The notes below the pieces were generated by a model. The model was not told where the DNA came from. It saw only the letters and a list, made by a program, of their open reading frames with translations, and did not search any database. Shown here one piece after another: positions 1-37,257 of a DNA stretch of 37,257 nt. The translations under genes and the position numbers were made by a program. Numbering within the stretch: the first letter of the stretch is position 1; each line of letters begins with the position of its first letter. The stretch lies in the IMG/VR virus record IMGVR_UViG_3300009151_000016, positions 1-37,257 of that record. One strand, given 5' to 3'. This DNA is from a virus.

Positions 1-123
1 ATCTGTGGACACTTCGGTGTACTACCAACACAGTTAGGTATGACCGCTTCTGGTGCGCTAGGAGAAACAGGACATCAGCAAGGCGAAGCATCCACCGCTG
101 AAAACATTGGTATGCGCCCACTC
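1..123. repeat. Left copy of terminal direct repeat (circular assembly overlap)
   Basis: Bases 1-123 match 37135-37257 base for base. The portal reading frame is in phase across the join, so the simplest reading is that a circular or circularly permuted genome was written out with a short overlap. A true 123-bp physical terminal repeat is possible but would have to lie inside the portal coding region, which is unusual. Confidence 0.93.
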
Positions 124-2385
124 ATCATGTGGCTTGAAGATCTGTTGAATCAACTGTCATACCGCTTCCTTGATATGCCTAAAGACTTACGCTTCCAGTT
201 CAGCGATGGAACAGAAGCAGACGAAATGGCTCAAACCAGTCGCAGACAAATGGAGTTCTTTAGTGGTCTTAAACCATTGAATGAGGTTCGTAGCGAAATG
301 GGTTTGCCATTGTTCTCATTCCCTGAAGCCGATCAGCCATTAGTTGTTGCTGGTTCTGTATTAACTCCTGTAGCCGCCGCTTTTGAAACGGTTGCTGTTG
401 ACGCAGGAGAAACAGATCAGCAAGCGTTAAATGCAACTAATGATGTGGCTGTAGAAACAGAATCCAAATCTGCTGAACTAACTCAATTCATTAAATGGTC
501 TAAAGGTGACCGTAAGCGTGACTTCATGTTCAAAACTGTTGATGGTGAAACTGCTGACCGTTTGAATCATCTTGTCCGTCACGACACACAAGCCGCTCGT
601 GATTTAGCCGTGCATCTGCGTAAGGCAGGTGGTGTCCACCCAAAAGTCCACAAGGGAAGGGAACCCTTCCCCAAGAACCATCCAGCGCGAACGGTGTCGG
701 ACAGGCTCGTACGGATTTATACAGACCGATTCGCTTCGGTTGGGAGCGTTGACGCAGAGCGTTTAGCCAGTCAATTTCTGGAGACACCTACTTCGGCTCC
801 GCGCCAATGGTTGAAAGAAAAAAATGTTGTTGTTTATGGTGCTGACGCTGTAAGCCTGTTGGAAGATTTGTTTTACGAATCTGCATGGATGGGGACTGTG
901 GGTGCGCGTGTGTTGGTGCGCCGTTTGAAGAAAGCACAGAAAGCCCCATTGTCTGCGTCATCGGCTGATTGGGTTGATTGGAAGGCTGGCGATGCTGACG
1001 CGGCTAAACAACTGGTGTCTGACGGTATGGGTGCTGGTATGCGAGCAATGCTTGACCGTGCTTCTATTGAAATTAAGGGTATTAACGAAACCACTCTTGA
1101 TCGTATTAGCAACATCCTGAGCCGTGGTGTTGAGGCAGGTGCTACGCCTGTAACGGTTGGTAAAGAGATCCGCGACCTTGTTGGTGATCCACGCAGGGCT
1201 GAGATGATTGCTAATACTGAGATGGCTCGTGCTGTTAATGCTTCTAATGTGGATGAGTATCGCAATGCTGGTGTGACGATGGTTGAGTGGCAAACCGCTG
1301 GTGATGATGGTGTGTGTGAGGATTGCGCCGCTAATGAGGCTGACAATCCGTATGAGATTGGTTCTGAACCTGAAGCCCCTGCACATCCGAATTGTGGTTG
1401 CCAGATTGTTCCTGCGGCGTTTGAGGATTTGGTTGAGTTGACTCCTGATGAGCAGGCTGAGGCTGACGCAATTTTTGGTGATGTTCCTTTTGTTGAGCCT
1501 GAGTCTGATGAGGATCATGCGAATGTTCAGGACACGCATGAGTTGGTGAGTGAGGCTGAGATTCTTTCTCCACCAGAAGAATTGAAACCTGTACGCAACG
1601 AACCTAAATACGCTAGTGAAGAAATACAAAGCCGTATTCAACAGTTCTATGACGAAGTTCTTTATGACGCTAAAGGTAATTTTGTTCACGATTGGGATGG
1701 TTACACAGGTAAGGGTGACAAACTGATGGAACGCTTGTGGCGTGAACAAGGCTTTGATGCCAAACCCACACTTGTTAATGATGTTCAATATGACACATTA
1801 AAAGCACAAGGTTGGGAACCTGTCTATAGAGGCATCGCCGCCGAAACACCAGAAGTAGTACAGCAATATGTTGACGCATACAAACAGGGTGACCCGTTTG
1901 CAGGTAAAGGCATTTTTGGTAACGGCACCTATGCTTCTATCTCTGAAGAAACCGCAGTTCACTTCAGCGAACACACCGCTACTGGTAAAGAAGTCCCACA
2001 CGGAAAAGTTATGGACTTGTTAATAAATCCAGAAGCGCGAATTGTTGATTACGAAACCATGAAAACACAATTCAGGGAATCAATAACCGACATTTTGGCT
2101 GAGAAAAATGCGATCAAACAAGAGTACGGCTTAATGAAGGATTACATGATGACCCCTTCTGAACTTGAAGCGGCTAAAGCAAAAATGCCTGAGTTTGCCA
2201 GAAGCGAACTGCAACGCTATGAAACCCTGCAAGACACATTGGGTGCTGATCCGATGCGTTGGGCAACAGCAGAAGGAATAGATGTTGTCAGGATTGTTAA
2301 CCCAACAGTCAACCTTGCCGAAGGCGCATTGAACGATACCTACCTAGTTATTCTTAACCGTGGCGTAGTAGCCATAAGAAAGTAA
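1..2385 (+). CDS. Portal C-terminus fused to MuF head protein and ADP-ribosyltransferase-like domain (3' part)
   Basis: The frame is open from base 1 and continues the gene that starts at 36007; together they encode about 1170 residues. The portal part ends near base 400. The MuF part (about 480-1430) has the usual core with TEMARAVNAS, VEWQTAGDDG and a metal-site-like CEDC followed by HPNCGC (Cys near residues 815 and 818 of the joined protein). A Glu/Asp-rich linker follows. The last 270 residues contain YRGI (Arg near 986), GIFGNGTYAS and a terminal YLVILNRG strand, the layout of phage and toxin ADP-ribosyltransferases. The catalytic Glu is not assigned with confidence. MuF proteins are minor head proteins, and some carry C-terminal toxin domains. 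Fusion to the portal would hold the enzyme at the DNA exit vertex, which is inference. Base use changes from G/T-rich to A/C-rich near 1565, at the MuF/ART boundary. Confidence 0.85.
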   Translation: MCGHFGVLPTQLGMTASGALGETGHQQGEASTAENIGMRPLIMWLEDLLNQLSYRFLDMPKDLRFQFSDGTEADEMAQTSRRQMEFFSGLKPLNEVRSEMGLPLFSFPEADQPLVVAGSVLTPVAAAFETVAVDAGETDQQALNATNDVAVETESKSAELTQFIKWSKGDRKRDFMFKTVDGETADRLNHLVRHDTQAARDLAVHLRKAGGVHPKVHKGREPFPKNHPARTVSDRLVRIYTDRFASVGSVDAERLASQFLETPTSAPRQWLKEKNVVVYGADAVSLLEDLFYESAWMGTVGARVLVRRLKKAQKAPLSASSADWVDWKAGDADAAKQLVSDGMGAGMRAMLDRASIEIKGINETTLDRISNILSRGVEAGATPVTVGKEIRDLVGDPRRAEMIANTEMARAVNASNVDEYRNAGVTMVEWQTAGDDGVCEDCAANEADNPYEIGSEPEAPAHPNCGCQIVPAAFEDLVELTPDEQAEADAIFGDVPFVEPESDEDHANVQDTHELVSEAEILSPPEELKPVRNEPKYASEEIQSRIQQFYDEVLYDAKGNFVHDWDGYTGKGDKLMERLWREQGFDAKPTLVNDVQYDTLKAQGWEPVYRGIAAETPEVVQQYVDAYKQGDPFAGKGIFGNGTYASISEETAVHFSEHTATGKEVPHGKVMDLLINPEARIVDYETMKTQFRESITDILAEKNAIKQEYGLMKDYMMTPSELEAAKAKMPEFARSELQRYETLQDTLGADPMRWATAEGIDVVRIVNPTVNLAEGALNDTYLVILNRGVVAIRK

Positions 2386-2389
2386 AACA

Positions 2390-3007
2390 ATGACAACCTT
2401 TTCATCATTCAGGGAACTGCGTGGACAAGCAGAAACAACCGTGTTTTTATTAGACGGTATAACTCGCATGGATTTTGTGGATGTTATTAAACAGTATGCA
2501 GACATTAACGATGTTCCAGAGCCGTACCATTCATGGATTGTTGACCCATCTTCCATACCTGAAGATAAGCGTTCATCGGTACGCCGACCATCTGACTATA
2601 GGAAACCTAAAGCATCCAAAGCGGTAGAACCTGAACTTGTAAAGGTGTATCGCAACGCCATAGATCAAGCCATAGACAAACTCAACGCACTCAACACAGA
2701 TGATGAAGGGCGCATAGAAGTCCCGTGGGTACAACACGCCCGACCTAAAATAGAAACCGAACGATGGGCAGACGCAAAACTACGATCATTCCTCATTGAA
2801 GAACTGCAAGCCACACAAAAATATGTGAAACGCGAAACCGTGCAATGGCACATAGAACACCTCAACGACTCTGCACACGACAACCGCGCAATGCCCAATG
2901 TGCTTGTAGCCGACACCGAATATCTCATCTACGATGGTCATCACCGTCTAGTCGCTTTATGGCTTTTGGGTGCTGACACAGCAAACTGCTGGAAACTGGA
3001 GATTTAA
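2390..3007 (+). CDS. ParB/sulfiredoxin-fold-like protein next to the MuF-ART gene
   Basis: A 205-residue protein that starts 4 bases after the portal-MuF-ART stop, so it is very probably co-translated with it. Its C-terminal half ends in YDGHHRLVALWLLGAD, the D-G-H-H-R signature of ParB/Srx-type domains, which in relatives bind or cleave nucleic acid or use ATP/CTP. The N-terminal half is mostly helical and not recognised. It shares the A/C-rich base use of the ART domain, suggesting the two arrived together. It could be a second packaged enzyme or a partner or immunity factor for the ART domain; nothing in the sequence decides this. Confidence 0.6.
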   Translation: MTTFSSFRELRGQAETTVFLLDGITRMDFVDVIKQYADINDVPEPYHSWIVDPSSIPEDKRSSVRRPSDYRKPKASKAVEPELVKVYRNAIDQAIDKLNALNTDDEGRIEVPWVQHARPKIETERWADAKLRSFLIEELQATQKYVKRETVQWHIEHLNDSAHDNRAMPNVLVADTEYLIYDGHHRLVALWLLGADTANCWKLEI

Positions 3008-3349: not shown

Positions 3350-4519
3350 ATGACCAATAATGCATCTGTGTTCGCACGAATCATCAAAACCGACAAACAA
3401 TCTGACGGGACACTAATGGTTACGGGTATCGCAACTGACGACACCGTAGATGTGGATGAACAAATCTGTGATCCTGAATGGTTGAAATCAGCAATGCCTG
3501 AATGGTTTTCTTGGGGCAACATCCGCGAACAGCACAGCAACATTGCCGCTGGTGTCGCTACAGAGTATGAGGCTAAAGGTTCTCAACACATCATCACAGC
3601 ACGGGTTGTTGATCCTGCTTCGGTGAAGAAAGTGGAGAACGGTGTTCTCAAAGGTTTCTCTATTGGTATCCGCAATCCGCGTGTTATCAAAGACGAAAAG
3701 GCTATTGGTGGTCGCATTGTTGACGGACAAATTGTGGAAGTGTCACTTGTTGACCGCCCTGCAAACCCGACTTGTGTATTGACTATGGCTAAAGCAGTAG
3801 ATGGGCTTTTGAAGTCCGTGGAAGGAAACATGATGAGTGAAGTAATTAAAGCCGCTGAGGAATCAACTGAGGAATCAACCGAGATGACAGCAGAGGCAAC
3901 TAGCGAAATGAAAGCAGTTGAAGAATCAACTGAAGAATCAACAGAGGGTTCAAACCCTGCTGAAGAATCAACCGAGGAATCAACCGAAGTTAAAGCAATG
4001 GAAGAATCCACAATGAGCAAAGAAGCCATGTGTAAAGAATGTGGCAAAGCCGAATCTGAATGCAAATGCGCTGAAGGTGGTTTTGAACGCAAAGCCGTTG
4101 AAGAATCATCACAGGCAGAAGGCGAAGAATCATCGCAAGAGATCGGTGAGGAATCATCGCGTGAAGGTGGCATTGCTGGCGTTGCTGGCAAATCCATTGA
4201 AGCAATTACAGAGCAGTTGACGCGCATTGAAAAGTCACTTACTCTGATGAACGAAACATACGGAAAATTGTTGAAAGGCGTTTCCACTACCGAGGACATC
4301 GCGAAGTCTGTGCAAGAGGTCACAGAGCGTTTGTCAGTAGTTGAAAAGTCACCAGCATCATCCGCACCTGTTCGTATGGCTGTTATAAACAAAGCCCCAA
4401 CCGTGAATCCAGACATTGCGAAAGCATCTGAATACCGCTCTAAGGCAATGGCAACAACAGACAGAAAACTCGCTGACGGGTACTTAGCACTCGCCGCCGA
4501 ACTTGAAACCAACCTCTAA
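3350..4519 (+). CDS. Prohead protease fused to scaffold-like domain
   Basis: A 389-residue protein. Residues 1-150 match the HK97-type (S78) maturation protease, with candidate catalytic His62 (EQHS) and Ser104 (LKGFSIG), and the diagnostic VEVSLVDRPANP. Residues about 165-280 are a low-complexity acidic tract with many EEST repeats, interrupted by a Cys cluster (CKECGKAESECKC). The C-terminal 110 residues are helical and coiled-coil-like (ITEQLTRIEKSLTLMNETYG), as expected of a scaffold. Protease and scaffold in one chain suits capsid assembly followed by self-cleavage. The ATG at 3350 has AAGGA 6 bases upstream. The major capsid gene follows after 18 bases. Confidence 0.88.
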   Translation: MTNNASVFARIIKTDKQSDGTLMVTGIATDDTVDVDEQICDPEWLKSAMPEWFSWGNIREQHSNIAAGVATEYEAKGSQHIITARVVDPASVKKVENGVLKGFSIGIRNPRVIKDEKAIGGRIVDGQIVEVSLVDRPANPTCVLTMAKAVDGLLKSVEGNMMSEVIKAAEESTEESTEMTAEATSEMKAVEESTEESTEGSNPAEESTEESTEVKAMEESTMSKEAMCKECGKAESECKCAEGGFERKAVEESSQAEGEESSQEIGEESSREGGIAGVAGKSIEAITEQLTRIEKSLTLMNETYGKLLKGVSTTEDIAKSVQEVTERLSVVEKSPASSAPVRMAVINKAPTVNPDIAKASEYRSKAMATTDRKLADGYLALAAELETNL

Positions 4520-22331: not shown

Positions 22332-23051
22332 TCATCCCGTTGCAGGGAACTTCAATCCGACTATCCCTTGTTTCTCTAGCGAGTTGATAATGATGCTGTC
22401 CACTTTGTATCCCCACGCTTTTGATGTTGCGGTGTGTCCGTTGATTGTGTGCCATCCGTCTATGCGTACTTTCCATCTGCGTTCTGTTACATCGCGCAAC
22501 ATCTTGTAGAAGGTTTCTCCGTGACCGCCTTCGTTTCCTCTGCCGTGAACGCTTCGGTATGCGGCGTGGCATAGTTCGTGCGCTAATACTTCCCATGCGC
22601 GTACGCCACCTTCGTGACCACGCATCACACGGATTGTTGCTGTTGCACCATCACACCATCCTGACTCGCCACGCTTTTGACGAGTATAAACAATTCTAAG
22701 TTTTGGCATTGGTCGGTGTGAGTGTGCGCCGAACAATTCCCAAAGGCGTTCTGCTTCTTTTTGAAAGATTGCATCGCGTTGTTTGATTTTCTTTTGTTCG
22801 TCACGCACCGCTTTTGTTTGTGTAGAAACTTTAGCGCGTTTTGTTTTTGTTTTGATTGCTGACTTTTCTTTTGATGCTTCGCGTTTCTTTTCTAATGCTG
22901 GTGCAACTCGCATAACAAGTGTTCCTTGTTTTGATGAGCATGGTAAGCAGTAACGGCGTATGTCGTTCATGCGTGGTCGTGATGGTGCTAGTAGTCCGTG
23001 ATCGCAGGTTGGGCATTTCCAACGAACTTGTTTTGTTGTTGTGGTTGTCAT
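22332..23051 (-). CDS. SprT-like zinc metalloprotease
   Basis: A 239-residue protein with an N-terminal zinc ribbon (Cys13, 16, 35, 38), a Lys-rich linker to about 95, and a protease core with HELCH (His158, Glu159, His162) and a downstream His177 in GGHGETF. This is the SprT/Spartan layout. Spartan enzymes cut proteins cross-linked to DNA. In a phage it could remove host proteins from DNA, or be an anti-defence protein; this is inference. It is the second gene of a reverse-strand operon, 14 bases after 23066-23254. Confidence 0.78.
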   Translation of the reverse strand: MTTTTTKQVRWKCPTCDHGLLAPSRPRMNDIRRYCLPCSSKQGTLVMRVAPALEKKREASKEKSAIKTKTKRAKVSTQTKAVRDEQKKIKQRDAIFQKEAERLWELFGAHSHRPMPKLRIVYTRQKRGESGWCDGATATIRVMRGHEGGVRAWEVLAHELCHAAYRSVHGRGNEGGHGETFYKMLRDVTERRWKVRIDGWHTINGHTATSKAWGYKVDSIIINSLEKQGIVGLKFPATG

Positions 23052-26433: not shown

Positions 26434-26797
26434 GGAACACGGAACTAATAGTCGTTTTCAGTCTGGTTGTCGGTGTTCTGACTGCATCTACGCAAATAAG
26501 TTTGTGTTGTTGCAGTTGGAATACCACGAACCGCACATTGATGAGACAAGACAGTTTTGTTCTGTGCGACCTTCTAAGAGCAGACCTTTTCCAGCACGGG
26601 ATTTAGTATTGGCTATTGGTCAACCGAACGCGGTTGTTCTTGCCAGCATGATTGGTGTGACGCGCTATACGGTCGCGGCGTGGCTTCGGCGTGGTGTTTG
26701 TTTCACTCCGTACGAAGCGGATCGTTACGCGATTCGTGGCGGTACACATCCTGCGTTGGTGTGGGGAGAGCGTTGGTACCATGATGAACTGGTATGA
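26420..26797 (+). CDS. Putative HTH protein with N-terminal Cys cluster
   Basis: 125 residues from a GTG at 26420 that overlaps the SSB end, with GGAG just upstream. The N-terminus (REHGTNSRFQSGCRCSDC) is a CxC-x2-C cluster. The C-terminal half (VVLASMIGVTRYTVAAWLRR, then YEADRYAIRGGTHPALVWGE) reads as a helix-turn-helix region typical of small actinophage DNA-binding proteins. It overlaps the WhiB gene by 17 bases. Confidence 0.65.
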   Translation: MTETREHGTNSRFQSGCRCSDCIYANKFVLLQLEYHEPHIDETRQFCSVRPSKSRPFPARDLVLAIGQPNAVVLASMIGVTRYTVAAWLRRGVCFTPYEADRYAIRGGTHPALVWGERWYHDELV

Positions 26798-27014
26798 AAT
26801 GGCTTCGTGTCGTGGAATGAATGTGAATGTGTTTTATCCGAAACATAATGAGTATGCAGAACCGCGCCGTGTTTGTAAGGATTGTGTTGTTCAGCGTGAG
26901 TGTTTGGATTCCACTTTGTATCGCGACAATGACAACTATGGAATGTTTGGTGGGTTGACTCCTATGGAGCGTCACACTTTAAGGGAGAGCCAAATGAGGT
27001 GGAAACCGCTGTGA
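26781..27014 (+). CDS. whiB: WhiB-family Fe-S transcription regulator
   Basis: 77 residues from ATG 26781 (26784 is possible). Four Cys at 10, 32, 35 and 41 have the WhiB spacing (C-x21-C-x2-C-x5-C), followed by GMFGGLTPMER, the variant of the G-[IV]-W-G-G turn and basic tail. WhiB proteins are found in Actinobacteria and their phages, bind a 4Fe-4S cluster and contact the main sigma factor. Phage WhiB can silence host genes and block superinfection. This is the strongest single host indicator. Confidence 0.88.
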   Translation: MMNWYEMASCRGMNVNVFYPKHNEYAEPRRVCKDCVVQRECLDSTLYRDNDNYGMFGGLTPMERHTLRESQMRWKPL

Positions 27015-27748
27015 AAGCGCACCAGCGGATCATTCGTGAGCGCGAAGCATCAGGAGATACAACCGATTGGCGTTTGTTTGAAGATGATTACCAGTCCGTT
27101 AATTGCGACATCAGTAACGCCGTTGTTCGTGAAGTCTCGTATGGAACTGCAAAAGAAATCATTATGAAATACGAATGGCTTGGCTCTATGCCTGCCGCTG
27201 TAATTAAATGTTTTGGTATTTTTTATGATCATTTGTGTGCTGGTGTTGTTGTGTATTCAACGGAGTATTCAGAAAATCTTGGTGTGTGGGACAAGTTTGG
27301 TTACACAAACAAAATGATTTTGTTGTCTCGTGGTGCGTGTGTTCATTGGGCGCATGAACATTCTGCTTCTAAATTGATTCGTCAATCTATGCGAATGCTT
27401 CCCGATAAATATGAGGTTGTTACTTGCACGGTTGATCCTGCGGCTGGCGAGATAGGAACCATTTATCAGGCGTGTGGGTTTTATTATGTGGGGGCTATGC
27501 GTGAGGCTAATCGTGATGCGTGGATGATTAACGGCAAACTTGTTGGTGAACGGTCGTTGCGTAAGATGATTGGAACTCAAAAGAAGGAAGAAGTGTTGAA
27601 GCGTTTTCCTCATGCTGAGTTTGTTAAACAATTTAATAAGGGTCGGTACTTTGCTTTTCGTGGTTCACGATTGGTTAAGAGAACGCATCTGGCGGCTCTT
27701 GAACATTTGATAAAGCCGTACCCTAAGAGAGTGAATGATGGAATCTAA
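26999..27748 (+). CDS. Mom-like DNA-modification enzyme (GNAT fold)
   Basis: 249 residues from a GTG at 26999, with AAGGGAG upstream. The core (GTAKEIIMKYEWLGSMP, then LSRGACVHWAHEHSASKLI and GTIYQACGFYYVGAM) matches the GNAT-like phage Mu Mom group, which alters adenine in phage DNA to resist restriction. The basic C-terminal region (RGSRLVKRTHLAALEHLIK) could bind DNA. It lies between WhiB and a putative nuclease. Other GNAT roles cannot be excluded. Confidence 0.68.
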   Translation: METAVKAHQRIIREREASGDTTDWRLFEDDYQSVNCDISNAVVREVSYGTAKEIIMKYEWLGSMPAAVIKCFGIFYDHLCAGVVVYSTEYSENLGVWDKFGYTNKMILLSRGACVHWAHEHSASKLIRQSMRMLPDKYEVVTCTVDPAAGEIGTIYQACGFYYVGAMREANRDAWMINGKLVGERSLRKMIGTQKKEEVLKRFPHAEFVKQFNKGRYFAFRGSRLVKRTHLAALEHLIKPYPKRVNDGI

Positions 27749-34188: not shown

Positions 34189-34635
34189 ATGAGTTACACT
34201 CAACACATGGCACAATCAAAATCACCCAAACCAGAAGTCATAGACAAAGAACGACAAGTCCTAGAACTACGCCGCGCAGGAGCCACCTATGACGACATCG
34301 CACGAACAGTCGGATACGCAGACCCATCAGGCGCATACACCGCATTCAGACGCGCACTCAAACGCACACTCCTAGACGCAGGATCAGAAGAAATCCGCGA
34401 AGCCGAACTAGACCGCCTTGACCGTATGCAACGCGCACTCTGGAACAAAGTCACCACAGGCGATGTCAACGCAATCAACACCGTTCTACGCATCATGCAC
34501 AGACGCGCCCAATACTTAGGGCTTGACTCACCAATCAAACAAGAAATCAAAGTGGACATAGCCGACACAACCAGCATTGACGCTGAAGTAGCACGACTCA
34601 TAGAAATGCTCGCCACCAACGACACACCTGCATGA
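34189..34635 (+). CDS. terS: Terminase small subunit
   Basis: A 148-residue protein with an N-terminal helix-turn-helix (QVLELRRAGATYDDIARTVG, then GAYTAFRRALKRTL) and a helical oligomerisation region, the layout of small terminase. ATG 34189 has no ribosome binding site; an ATG at 34207 is possible. It overlaps the large subunit by 4 bases and would choose the packaging site. Confidence 0.78.
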   Translation: MSYTQHMAQSKSPKPEVIDKERQVLELRRAGATYDDIARTVGYADPSGAYTAFRRALKRTLLDAGSEEIREAELDRLDRMQRALWNKVTTGDVNAINTVLRIMHRRAQYLGLDSPIKQEIKVDIADTTSIDAEVARLIEMLATNDTPA

Positions 34636-35954
34636 GCGACATAAACACACGCATCGCCGCATCACAGTTCCGTTGGGAACACCAACAAGCCCGACCCGAC
34701 CAGTTACCACCAGACGGTGACTGGATGATCTGGCTAATTCAATCAGGGCGTGGATGGGGCAAGACCCGTGTAGGTGCTGAAACGATCGCTAAGTGGGCAA
34801 TACGACAACCCAACACCAGATGGGCGATACTTGCACCAACCTTCGGTGACGCTCGTGACACCTGCGTAGAAGGTGAGTCGGGGCTACTCAACATTTTAAG
34901 ACGATACGGAATGCTCCGAGACAAAAACGGATGGAACAGATCTATCGGCGAAATCCACCTCACCAACGGTTCACGCATCAAATGTTTCTCAGGTGACGAA
35001 CCAGACAGACTCCGTGGCTCTCAACACCACGGCGCATGGGTAGATGAATACGCCGCGTTCCGATATCCAGATGCGTTTGACCAACTTCAATTCGGTTTAC
35101 GACTAGGGCAACACCCACGCACAGTCATCACCACCACGCCACGATCAAAACCCTTTATCCGTGCGTTACTGAAACGCCAAGACGGTTCCGTGATCATCAC
35201 CCGTGGCGCAACCTTTGACAACAAAGACAACCTTGCACCAGCCGCACTTGCTGAACTACTCGCAAGATACGAAGGCACCCGTTTAGGCAAGCAAGAGTTA
35301 TACGGCGAACTATTAGAAGATGTAGAAGGCGCACTCTGGACACTCGCACTCATTGAATCCGCACGAATCACCGAAGCCCCACACCTATCACGCGTCATTG
35401 TCGCTGTTGACCCTGCCGTAACCGAAACAGGAGACGAAACAGGCATCATCGTTGCAGGCAGAGACACCAACCACAACGGCTATGTACTCGCTGACTATTC
35501 AATGCGTGGCAGACCTGACGCATGGGCAAGACAAGTCATAGAAGCATACGACATCCACATGGCTGACTCCGTAGTAGTGGAAGTCAATCAAGGCGGTGAA
35601 CTTGTATCCCAAGTCCTACGCACCATCAGACCATCACTTCCGATCCGTGAAGTACGCGCATCCAAAGGCAAACGGTTACGCGCCGAACCCATTAGTGCTT
35701 TATACGAACAAGGCAAAGTTCACCATGTCGGTGTGTTTGACAACCTAGAAAACCAAATGTGCGAATGGACACCAGACGACCCCAAATCACCCGATCGTTT
35801 AGATGCACTCGTATGGGCAATGACCGACCTGATACAACATTCAGGTGTGCAATCGTTCCTAGATCAACTCGCAACAATGTGTCCATCGTGCAACTACCCA
35901 AACAAAAAAGAAGCGATTATGTGTGTCTCTTGTATGCGCCCAATCACAGGATGA
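34632..35954 (+). CDS. terL: Terminase large subunit with C-terminal zinc ribbon
   Basis: A 440-residue protein with Walker A SGRGWGKTR (Lys44, Thr45), Walker B in GAWVDEY near 135, and nuclease Asp in VIVAVDPAV near 256, then WAMTDLI near 410. It cuts and pumps DNA into the head. The last 25 residues form an extra zinc ribbon, CPSC and CVSC. The portal gene follows. Confidence 0.9.
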   Translation: MSDINTRIAASQFRWEHQQARPDQLPPDGDWMIWLIQSGRGWGKTRVGAETIAKWAIRQPNTRWAILAPTFGDARDTCVEGESGLLNILRRYGMLRDKNGWNRSIGEIHLTNGSRIKCFSGDEPDRLRGSQHHGAWVDEYAAFRYPDAFDQLQFGLRLGQHPRTVITTTPRSKPFIRALLKRQDGSVIITRGATFDNKDNLAPAALAELLARYEGTRLGKQELYGELLEDVEGALWTLALIESARITEAPHLSRVIVAVDPAVTETGDETGIIVAGRDTNHNGYVLADYSMRGRPDAWARQVIEAYDIHMADSVVVEVNQGGELVSQVLRTIRPSLPIREVRASKGKRLRAEPISALYEQGKVHHVGVFDNLENQMCEWTPDDPKSPDRLDALVWAMTDLIQHSGVQSFLDQLATMCPSCNYPNKKEAIMCVSCMRPITG

Positions 35955-36028
35955 GTAAGATGCACTATTCAAGACGCAAAGCAATCAAGATTGGAAGGCG
36001 TAACACATGGGCATTCGTGACCGCATAG
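35951..36028 (+). CDS. Possible 25-residue basic peptide
   Basis: ATG 35951 overlaps the terminase stop (ATGA). The product (MHYSRRKAIKIGRRNTWAF) is very basic. It ends 22 bases inside the portal gene. Coupling favours translation; it may serve only to carry ribosomes to the portal start. Confidence 0.35.
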   Translation: MSKMHYSRRKAIKIGRRNTWAFVTA

Positions 36029-37257
36029 GCAAAGCATTGGCACTACCTTCAGGTGCAACAACATTGTCACCAGCGCAAATACAGGCAATGCAAAACATTC
36101 CTCAATCAGGCATGAGGGCTGTACCACTTGAACGCGACATCCAAGACGCAATCGTTCCGTTCCCTGCGGCAACACCACTAATCCCTGCACTCATTAACGC
36201 ACCACGCGATGATGGTCGTGCTGACCCACGCAAATACGAATACCCCGTTGCATGGAACCTTCAACTAACTGAACAACGCGCAATCCCATTCAAACTGTTG
36301 CGCGAAGTTGCTGATCAGGCTGACATTGTTCGTAAATGCATTGAGATTGTTAAAGCCACCGTTGCAGGTATGGAATGGGACATCACCATGACCGATAGTG
36401 CTGTACGGCGTGTCATGGAAGAACAAGAACTAGGACAGACACTCGCCGCAAAGGTTGCTCGCGATGCTTTACAGCCTGAGATGACACGCGCTAAAGACTT
36501 CTGGATTTCACCAGACCGCATGAACGGCATGAGTTTCCAAGAGTGGATAATGATGGCGTTAGAAGAAATGCTTGTCCTTGACGCGCTTTCCATCTATCCG
36601 AACCGCACCCAAGACAACAAAGATTTACATTCACTTGAAATCCTTGACGGGTCAACCATTAAACCATTGTTGAATCAGCGTGGCTCACGCCCACTCCCAC
36701 CACACCCTGCGTTCCAACAGATCCTTTGGGGTTTCCCTCGTGGCGAGTTCACCGCATCAGCAGACAGCAACGGCGAGTTCACACAAGACGACCTTGTGTA
36801 TGCGCCACGCACACGCCGAACAAACACACCATACGGTTACTCACCTGTAGAGCGTTGCTTAACACTTGTTGACCTTTACATGAAACGCCTTCAATGGCTT
36901 CGTACAGAGTTCACAGATGGTGTCGCTCCTGATGTGATGATGCAAACAGATGCTTCGTTTGGTTCAAACCCTGAACTACTGCGTGGCTATGAACAAGTCT
37001 TTAACGATGCACTTGCAGGAAACCTAGAACAACGCAGGCGTATGCGCATCTTGCCTTCAGGCATGAACCCCATATTCCCACCAGCATCCGACAAGAAACA
37101 CTCATCAGAGTTTGACAACTGGCTCATCCAACAAATCTGTGGACACTTCGGTGTACTACCAACACAGTTAGGTATGACCGCTTCTGGTGCGCTAGGAGAA
37201 ACAGGACATCAGCAAGGCGAAGCATCCACCGCTGAAAACATTGGTATGCGCCCACTC
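36007..37257 (+). CDS. Portal protein, N-terminal part of the portal-MuF-ART fusion
   Basis: ATG 36007 opens a frame of 417 codons to the window end with no stop. Codon 377 begins at 37135, which equals base 1, so the frame continues there. Portal features include PVAWNLQLTEQRAIPFKLLR, EWIMMALEEMLVLDALSIYP and YGYSPVERCLTLVDLYMKR. Portals form the 12-fold ring through which DNA enters and leaves. In most relatives portal and MuF are separate genes; here they share one chain. Confidence 0.88.
   Translation, partial: MGIRDRIGKALALPSGATTLSPAQIQAMQNIPQSGMRAVPLERDIQDAIVPFPAATPLIPALINAPRDDGRADPRKYEYPVAWNLQLTEQRAIPFKLLREVADQADIVRKCIEIVKATVAGMEWDITMTDSAVRRVMEEQELGQTLAAKVARDALQPEMTRAKDFWISPDRMNGMSFQEWIMMALEEMLVLDALSIYPNRTQDNKDLHSLEILDGSTIKPLLNQRGSRPLPPHPAFQQILWGFPRGEFTASADSNGEFTQDDLVYAPRTRRTNTPYGYSPVERCLTLVDLYMKRLQWLRTEFTDGVAPDVMMQTDASFGSNPELLRGYEQVFNDALAGNLEQRRRMRILPSGMNPIFPPASDKKHSSEFDNWLIQQICGHFGVLPTQLGMTASGALGETGHQQGEASTAENIGMRPL
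37135..37257. repeat. Right copy of terminal direct repeat (circular assembly overlap)
   Basis: This is the second copy of the 123-bp sequence at the left edge. It lies inside the portal gene and is in frame with it. Removing one copy leaves about 37,134 bp of unique sequence. Confidence 0.93.

What the first reader, a model, noticed from the sequence alone, without database searches (positions are those of the whole stretch)
36007..37257. Portal, MuF head protein and ADP-ribosyltransferase-like domain in one chain
Seen: one open frame runs from 36007 through the circular join to 2385, about 1170 codons, with portal, MuF and a C-terminal domain carrying YRGI, GNGTYAS and a terminal LNRG strand. 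Known: MuF proteins sometimes carry toxin domains, and T4 injects ADP-ribosyltransferases from the head. Inference: a toxin fused to the portal could be presented at the exit pore or released by the maturation protease for injection, in up to 12 copies.
Basis: partly seen in the sequence, partly recalled or inferred. Interest (0 to 1): 0.88.

Follow-up and report, generated by a model that had tools for sequence, protein, structure and literature searches.

The report
Phage portal protein carrying swappable enzyme cargo
This phage makes its DNA-gate (portal) protein, a head protein (MuF) and an ADP-ribosyltransferase-like enzyme domain as one chain, and its relatives swap that last domain for other enzymes, which suggests that the phage head carries an exchangeable effector into the bacterium.

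Summary
One 1170-codon frame runs from 36007 across the circular join to 2385. An independently assembled, 100% identical contig carries it uninterrupted. Portal and MuF are clear Pfam hits.

The C-terminal ~225 residues have no database hit of their own. They belong to a phage domain family with invariant RG, G.GxxGNGxY and LNR, whose other members give weak hits to ART-PolyVal and PARP. The AlphaFold model's credible PDB matches are all PARPs or diphtheria toxin. I judge it an ADP-ribosyltransferase (ART) fold, but catalysis is doubtful: the third catalytic acid is a Thr here and acidic in only 15 of 46 relatives.

The strongest new evidence is exchange. In near-identical phages (portal 98-99%, MuF 96-99%) the tail after MuF is this ART, a canonical ART or a zincin-like protease. 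In two relatives with the same portal-MuF fusion it is a ParB-like domain, which here is a separate gene after the ART. So the ART is a modular cargo cassette.

Portal-MuF fusions and MuF-ART toxins are both published. The three-way fusion is a new variant of a known kind, and it recurs once (portal-MuF-Nudix-ART). Virion release, injection and enzymatic activity are inferred, not shown.

The parts
36007..37257 (+). Portal domain, residues 1-417 of the 1170-aa chain (continues at window 124)
   Evidence: PF04860 1.7e-12; phrog_2662 1.7e-43
1..1101 (+). Rest of the portal and the linking helical region (chain residues 377-743; window 1-123 repeats 37135-37257)
   Evidence: phrog_2662 continues through it, 3.2e-33; 58.6% identical to L009 over chain residues 1-899
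1102..1407 (+). MuF domain (chain residues 744-845)
   Evidence: PF04233 3.6e-11; TIGR01641 3.7e-10
1408..1707 (+). Acidic linker after MuF, its last part of low confidence in the model; last point of homology to L009 at chain residue 899
1708..2382 (+). ART-like cargo domain (chain residues 946-1170): R986 in YRG, GNGTY with Y1020, T1156/D1155 before the LNR strand
   Evidence: AlphaFold2 pLDDT 82.8, pTM 0.78; fold searches; family alignment A4; Pfam hits of relatives
2390..3007 (+). Separate downstream gene; residues 77-205 are the ParB-like domain that is fused directly behind MuF in L009 and L010
   Evidence: 60% identity to L009 residues 908-1036; phrog_1033 9.3e-5
3350..4519 (+). Probable head maturation protease plus scaffold, candidate for releasing the cargo
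   Evidence: phrog_80 head maturation protease 1.8e-10
34632..35954 (+). Terminase large subunit, directly upstream of the portal gene
   Evidence: PF03237 1.1e-23, PF17289 2.1e-20

Best explanation
The gene makes a portal subunit with a MuF domain and an exchangeable C-terminal effector of the ADP-ribosyltransferase superfamily. The portal part builds the ring at the head vertex, which places MuF and the cargo inside the head (inferred). The cargo is then set free, most likely by the head maturation protease, and enters the new host with the DNA, where it modifies a host target (inferred). The ART-like cassette lies between MuF and a ParB-like domain that is a separate gene here but fused to MuF in relatives (shown by comparison).
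For: Intact frame in two assemblies. Portal and MuF profiles. ART-like fold: confident model; every PDB match listed with probability of 0.2 or more is a PARP or diphtheria toxin; BFVD matches at E<=1e-3 include an annotated PolyVal ART; 11 of 32 family members hit ART-PolyVal and 7 of 32 hit PARP in Pfam. The domain sits in one chain with MuF in most related loci. Exchange at the MuF tail: L136/L142 (this ART), L132 (zincin-like), L148 and L143/L151 (canonical ART) share portals at 98-99% and MuF at 96-99% and then differ completely; canonical ART confirmed as PF03496 at 4e-18 and 3e-13 in cluster members L125 and L107. Cargo against ParB in the window's own lineage. Precedent: the MuF-ART Bxa has antibacterial ART activity (PMC11699363).
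Against: The window domain itself matches no Pfam, PHROG or PDB sequence profile; the relatives' hits are below Pfam's cut-off (20.9 against 31.2 bits); no PDB fold match reaches 1e-3; profile comparison with ART-PolyVal is inconclusive (E 0.067). The third catalytic acid is missing. There is no direct evidence of cleavage, virion content or injection. Twelve copies of a ~30-kDa cargo tethered to the portal could hinder packaging.
Confidence: 0.6

Rival explanations
1. The C-terminal domain has the ART fold but no enzymatic activity; it is a structural or binding module of the portal-MuF complex (for example NAD, nucleic acid or protein binding) that stays in the head.
For: The third catalytic acid is Thr in the window and acidic at the canonical position in only 15 of 46 relatives, while the RG, GNGxY and LNR residues are nearly invariant.
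Against: The same slot holds canonical PF03496 ARTs and HExxH-type proteins in near-identical phages, as expected of effectors. Some active mono-ARTs also lack the Glu (own knowledge of PARP10-like enzymes).
Confidence: 0.22
2. The ART acts during assembly in the producing cell (on portal, capsid, packaging or host proteins) and is not injected.
For: It is encoded among the head genes; Iyer and colleagues raise protection of packaging components as an alternative (PMC9503650).
Against: Cargo exchange among near-identical phages would be hard to bear for a part needed in assembly; SPP1 gp7 is dispensable for assembly but helps infection (PMC6316719).
Confidence: 0.08
3. The C-terminal domain is not an ART but an unrelated fold with look-alike motifs.
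For: No significant sequence-profile hit for the window domain; PDB fold match only E 0.065; profile comparison inconclusive.
Against: All listed PDB fold matches with probability of 0.2 or more are ART superfamily; BFVD match to an annotated PolyVal ART; ART-PolyVal hits from several separate subfamilies, L034, L036 and L052.
Confidence: 0.09
4. The fusion is an artefact of circularising the contig.
For: The join lies inside the portal part.
Against: Uninterrupted in a second contig, 100% identical on both sides; L001 carries the same chain architecture with a divergent N-terminus; L053 is a separate three-way fusion.
Confidence: 0.01

Closest known systems
MuF polymorphic toxins of phages (Jamet 2017, PMC5576092; Bxa, PMC11699363)
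   Same: MuF domain followed by an exchangeable C-terminal effector, often an ART, in the head gene cluster next to terminase and portal
   Different: Here portal and MuF are one chain; the ART belongs to a different family; no recognised immunity gene; no integrase found, whereas the published toxins were tied to temperate phages
Portal-MuF fusion proteins (Microbacterium phage clusters EA and EB, PMC7302621; Arthrobacter phages Sonali and Mufasa8; phrog_2662)
   Same: Portal and MuF in one chain; the two Arthrobacter ones also carry an enzyme domain (NUDIX)
   Different: No ART at the C-terminus in the two Arthrobacter proteins tested here; NUDIX lies between portal and MuF in them
MuF-VIP2 ART fusions (Microbacterium clusters EH and EJ, PMC7302621); Alt/VIP2 and N4-type ARTs on MuF (PMC9503650)
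   Same: ART fused behind MuF, predicted virion component
   Different: VIP2-type ARTs have the R-STS-ExE pattern; this domain has RG-GNGxY-LNR
ART-PolyVal (PF18760), Tox-ART-HYD2 clade (PMC5512222)
   Same: Similar landmarks: Y[HR]G, GxGxY, A..Y, YDxI, YxVxx strand; predicted structures match
   Different: Arg in place of the strand-1 His, no conserved strand-5 Asp, below Pfam's cut-off
Phage T4 Alt
   Same: Head-packaged ART as working model
   Different: Alt is a separate protein of another sequence family (own knowledge); injection not tested here

Membership tests
Portal-MuF fusion (phrog_2662) | One profile spanning portal and MuF | tested here: met
   1.7e-43 for the N-terminal piece, 3.2e-33 for the rest up to the end of MuF
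MuF polymorphic toxins | MuF domain upstream of the effector, beside terminase and portal | tested here: met
   PF04233 3.6e-11, terminase at 34632-35954
MuF polymorphic toxins | Variable C-terminal domain behind a conserved MuF | tested here: met
   Tail exchange in L132, L136, L142, L143, L148, L151; ART against ParB in L009/L010
MuF polymorphic toxins | Carried by a temperate phage | tested here: inconclusive
   No PF00589 or PF00239 match in the window or 13 relatives; several of those records are fragments
MuF polymorphic toxins | Adjacent immunity gene | tested here: inconclusive
   Next gene is ParB-like with an unassigned 76-aa N-terminal extension
MuF polymorphic toxins | Toxicity of the C-terminal domain | not testable with these tools
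   Needs expression
ART superfamily fold | ART-type fold | tested here: met
   Met with moderate strength: model pLDDT 82.8; all credible PDB matches are ARTs but at E>=0.065; BFVD PolyVal ART at 7e-4
ART-PolyVal (PF18760) | Score above Pfam's gathering cut-off | tested here: not met
   Window: no hit; best relative 20.9 against 31.2 bits
ART-PolyVal (PF18760) | H-Y-D active site | tested here: not met
   Arg for His, Tyr kept, Thr (Asp beside it) in the third place
R-S-E ARTs (VIP2, PF03496) | R, STS and ExE motifs and a PF03496 hit | tested here: not met
   R present; no STS or ExE; no PF03496 hit
T4 Alt-like injected ART | Protein in the virion and injected | not testable with these tools
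   Needs virion proteomics and an infection assay

The most novel reading that the evidence does not exclude
The portal ring is an obligate, stoichiometric carrier: twelve copies of a swappable enzyme are built into every particle through the portal subunit, are cut free in the head and enter the host with the DNA, in phages without an integrase; and the ART uses an unusual R-Y-x active site without a conserved acid.
Probability: 0.25. Interest if true: 0.72.

Novelty: new variant of a known kind. Interest (0 to 1): 0.52.

Why it matters
If the cargo is active, the portal subunit itself fixes how much effector each particle carries, which makes dose and release testable. The set of near-identical environmental phages that differ only in the domain behind MuF is a natural swap experiment: it can show what a virion-borne ART, protease or ParB-like domain buys a phage. 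The ART family, with its missing acid, also asks whether such phage ARTs are enzymes at all.

Tried and rejected
Assembly artefact at the join: rejected. Whole-chain AlphaFold2 with only four sequences: mean pLDDT 35, no use. PDB sequence searches with P0003, A4 and A5: nothing meaningful. Profile comparison of A4 with ART-PolyVal and with the canonical ART tails: inconclusive (E 0.067 and 0.12; ParB control 0.48). The first genome-contig scan found nothing, the second three loci. L101, L130, L132, L155 and L163 first grouped with the ART tails by single linkage through L122, which carries both; they are zincin-like, not ART. A bad frame in the L053 reference was corrected and L172 was dropped. 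ART-PolyVal was not found in the three cellular genomes that hold this domain, so examples came from other Clostridia.

Full report
Observation. The window is a circular phage record with a 123-base terminal overlap. The frame starting with ATG at 36007 runs to 37257 (417 codons) and continues in frame at 124 to the stop at 2383-2385, giving 1170 residues. I did not splice the halves. A second contig from another IMG sample (IMGVR_UViG_3300009154_002895) contains the same 1170-aa ORF whole (L002:3454-6966) and is 100% identical on both sides of the join. The perfect identity means it may be the same phage population, but it is a separate assembly. L001 has the same C-terminal part with a divergent first ~240 residues (96.4% then 100% at DNA level), either a mosaic or an assembly chimera.

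Domains. The N-terminal piece matches Phage_portal (1.7e-12) and the second piece Phage_Mu_F (3.6e-11). phrog_2662, 'portal protein', spans both, so the portal-MuF fusion is an established architecture. It is annotated as such in Arthrobacter phage Sonali and described for Microbacterium clusters EA and EB (PMC7302621). The last ~320 residues match nothing in Pfam, PHROGs, NCBIfam or the PDB by sequence.

The C-terminal family. tblastn found weak relatives in Gordonia phage Phendrix gp66, cyanophage PSS2 gp030 (a MuF protein) and a Nocardia plasmid. An alignment search of viral contigs returned 70 loci. In the 32-member alignment the invariant columns are RG, G.G..GNG.Y, a Gly and LNR. In most loci the domain is in one chain with MuF. 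Taken one by one, 11 of 32 members hit PF18760 ART-PolyVal (best 6.5e-4) and 7 of 32 hit PF00644 PARP (best 1.1e-4), all below Pfam's curated cut-offs where scores were shown. AlphaFold2 on this alignment gives a confident model (pLDDT 82.8, pTM 0.78). Foldseek against the PDB has no match at 1e-3, but every listed match with probability of 0.2 or more is a PARP or diphtheria toxin chain. Against predicted viral proteins there are 20 matches at 1e-3, including one annotated PolyVal ART and a 1499-residue protein that by its length is probably PSS2 gp030. Profile comparison with ART-PolyVal aligns the expected landmarks (YRG to YHG, GNGTY to GxYF, A..Y) without significance (E 0.067, control 0.48). 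I conclude ART superfamily with about 85-90% confidence, as its own branch.

Active site. Counting 46 members, the RG is found in 44 and the GNGxY-type motif in all 46 (which partly follows from how they were found), but an acid at the PARP-Glu position is found in only 15, and within the three residues before the strand in 23. The window has N-D-T-Y: Thr at the canonical place, Asp one before it. This is neither the R-S-E nor the H-Y-D pattern. Mono-ARTs without the Glu exist (own knowledge), so this lowers but does not exclude activity.

Exchange of the cargo. L009 and L010 share 58.6-58.9% identity with the window chain up to residues 899 and 851. In both, the chain then continues into a ParB-like domain. 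In the window, that ParB-like domain (60-62% identical) is residues 77-205 of a separate gene whose start lies 4 bases after the ART stop codon. The ART, plus a 76-residue leader of the ParB gene, thus lies between MuF and ParB. A portal-profile search returned at least 578 relatives, the best 80 kept. In most, portal and MuF are neighbouring genes. The tail behind MuF is short, or holds a ParB-like domain, this ART, a canonical ART (PF03496: L125 4e-18, L107 3e-13), a zincin-like HExxH protein (weak ATLF hits), a GNAT-like or an unassigned domain. In L136/L142, L132, L148 and L143/L151 the portals are 98-99% and the first ~287 MuF residues 96-99% identical, after which the tails are unrelated: this ART, zincin-like, canonical ART. 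Where a cargo tail and a stand-alone ParB gene are both present, ParB lies immediately behind (L089, L104, L116, L125 and the window); where ParB is fused to MuF (nine cases) there is no other cargo. L120, with ParB in the portal and a canonical ART tail, is a further arrangement.

A second three-way fusion. L053 carries portal, MuF, NUDIX (1.2e-12) and this ART in one chain; L050 shows the C-terminal end. Arthrobacter phages Mufasa8 and Sonali are portal-NUDIX-MuF. L031 has the unfused state: a portal related to the window's and a separate MuF-ART.

Mechanism. Shown: architecture, intact frame, modular exchange, probable ART fold. From the literature: the SPP1 portal gp6 targets the MuF protein gp7 to the procapsid interior in few copies, gp7 is dispensable for assembly and helps infection, and toxins fused behind MuF are proposed to be delivered at the start of infection (PMC6316719); MuF-ART Bxa kills E. 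coli when expressed (PMC11699363); ARTs on MuF and on head or portal proteins have been catalogued (PMC9503650). Inferred: covalent fusion to the portal makes targeting obligatory and could give up to twelve copies on the head-interior side; release would need a cut, for which the protease-like gene at 3350-4519 (phrog_80) is a candidate; the free domain travels with the DNA.

Lifestyle and host. A WhiB gene (9.3e-15) points to an actinobacterial host. No tyrosine integrase or serine recombinase was found in the window or in 13 relatives, though several records are fragments. Jamet and colleagues found MuF toxins only in temperate phages (PMC5576092); lytic Microbacterium phages with MuF-VIP2 (PMC7302621) are already exceptions.

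Verdict. Real, probably an ART-fold cargo on a portal-MuF carrier; a new variant of the known MuF effector theme. The exchange evidence is the strongest part; enzymatic activity and injection remain open.

Noticed in passing
26999-27745 (+): Mom-family DNA modification protein (PF25680, 1.4e-21), next to a WhiB gene.
   Followed up: no
26691-27014 (+): WhiB transcription factor (PF02467, 9.3e-15), which points to an actinobacterial host.
   Followed up: partly
L053:1771-6315 and L050:1-2163: Portal-MuF-NUDIX-ART in one chain: an ADP-ribose-type hydrolase fold and an ART on the same portal subunit.
   Followed up: partly
L132, L136, L142, L143, L148, L151: Near-identical phages differing in the domain behind MuF (zincin-like, this ART, canonical ART).
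   Followed up: yes
L005:446-4945 (cyanophage PSS2 gp030): MuF protein with, by eye, a P-loop segment (ASGKG), a second ART-like segment (VYRGM...EWEVLMP) and the GNGTY domain in one chain.
   Followed up: no
L001:1-1680: Portal N-terminus diverges and then becomes 100% identical to the window: phage mosaic or assembly chimera.
   Followed up: partly
2390-2617 (+): 76-residue leader of the ParB-like gene, absent from the fused ParB versions; origin unknown, could be part of the inserted cassette.
   Followed up: no
3854-3997 (+): EESTEEST-type repeats inside the protease/scaffold gene (repeat family D1).
   Followed up: no
22332-23051 (-): SprT-like metallopeptidase gene (6.8e-6) on the opposite strand to its neighbours.
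   Followed up: no
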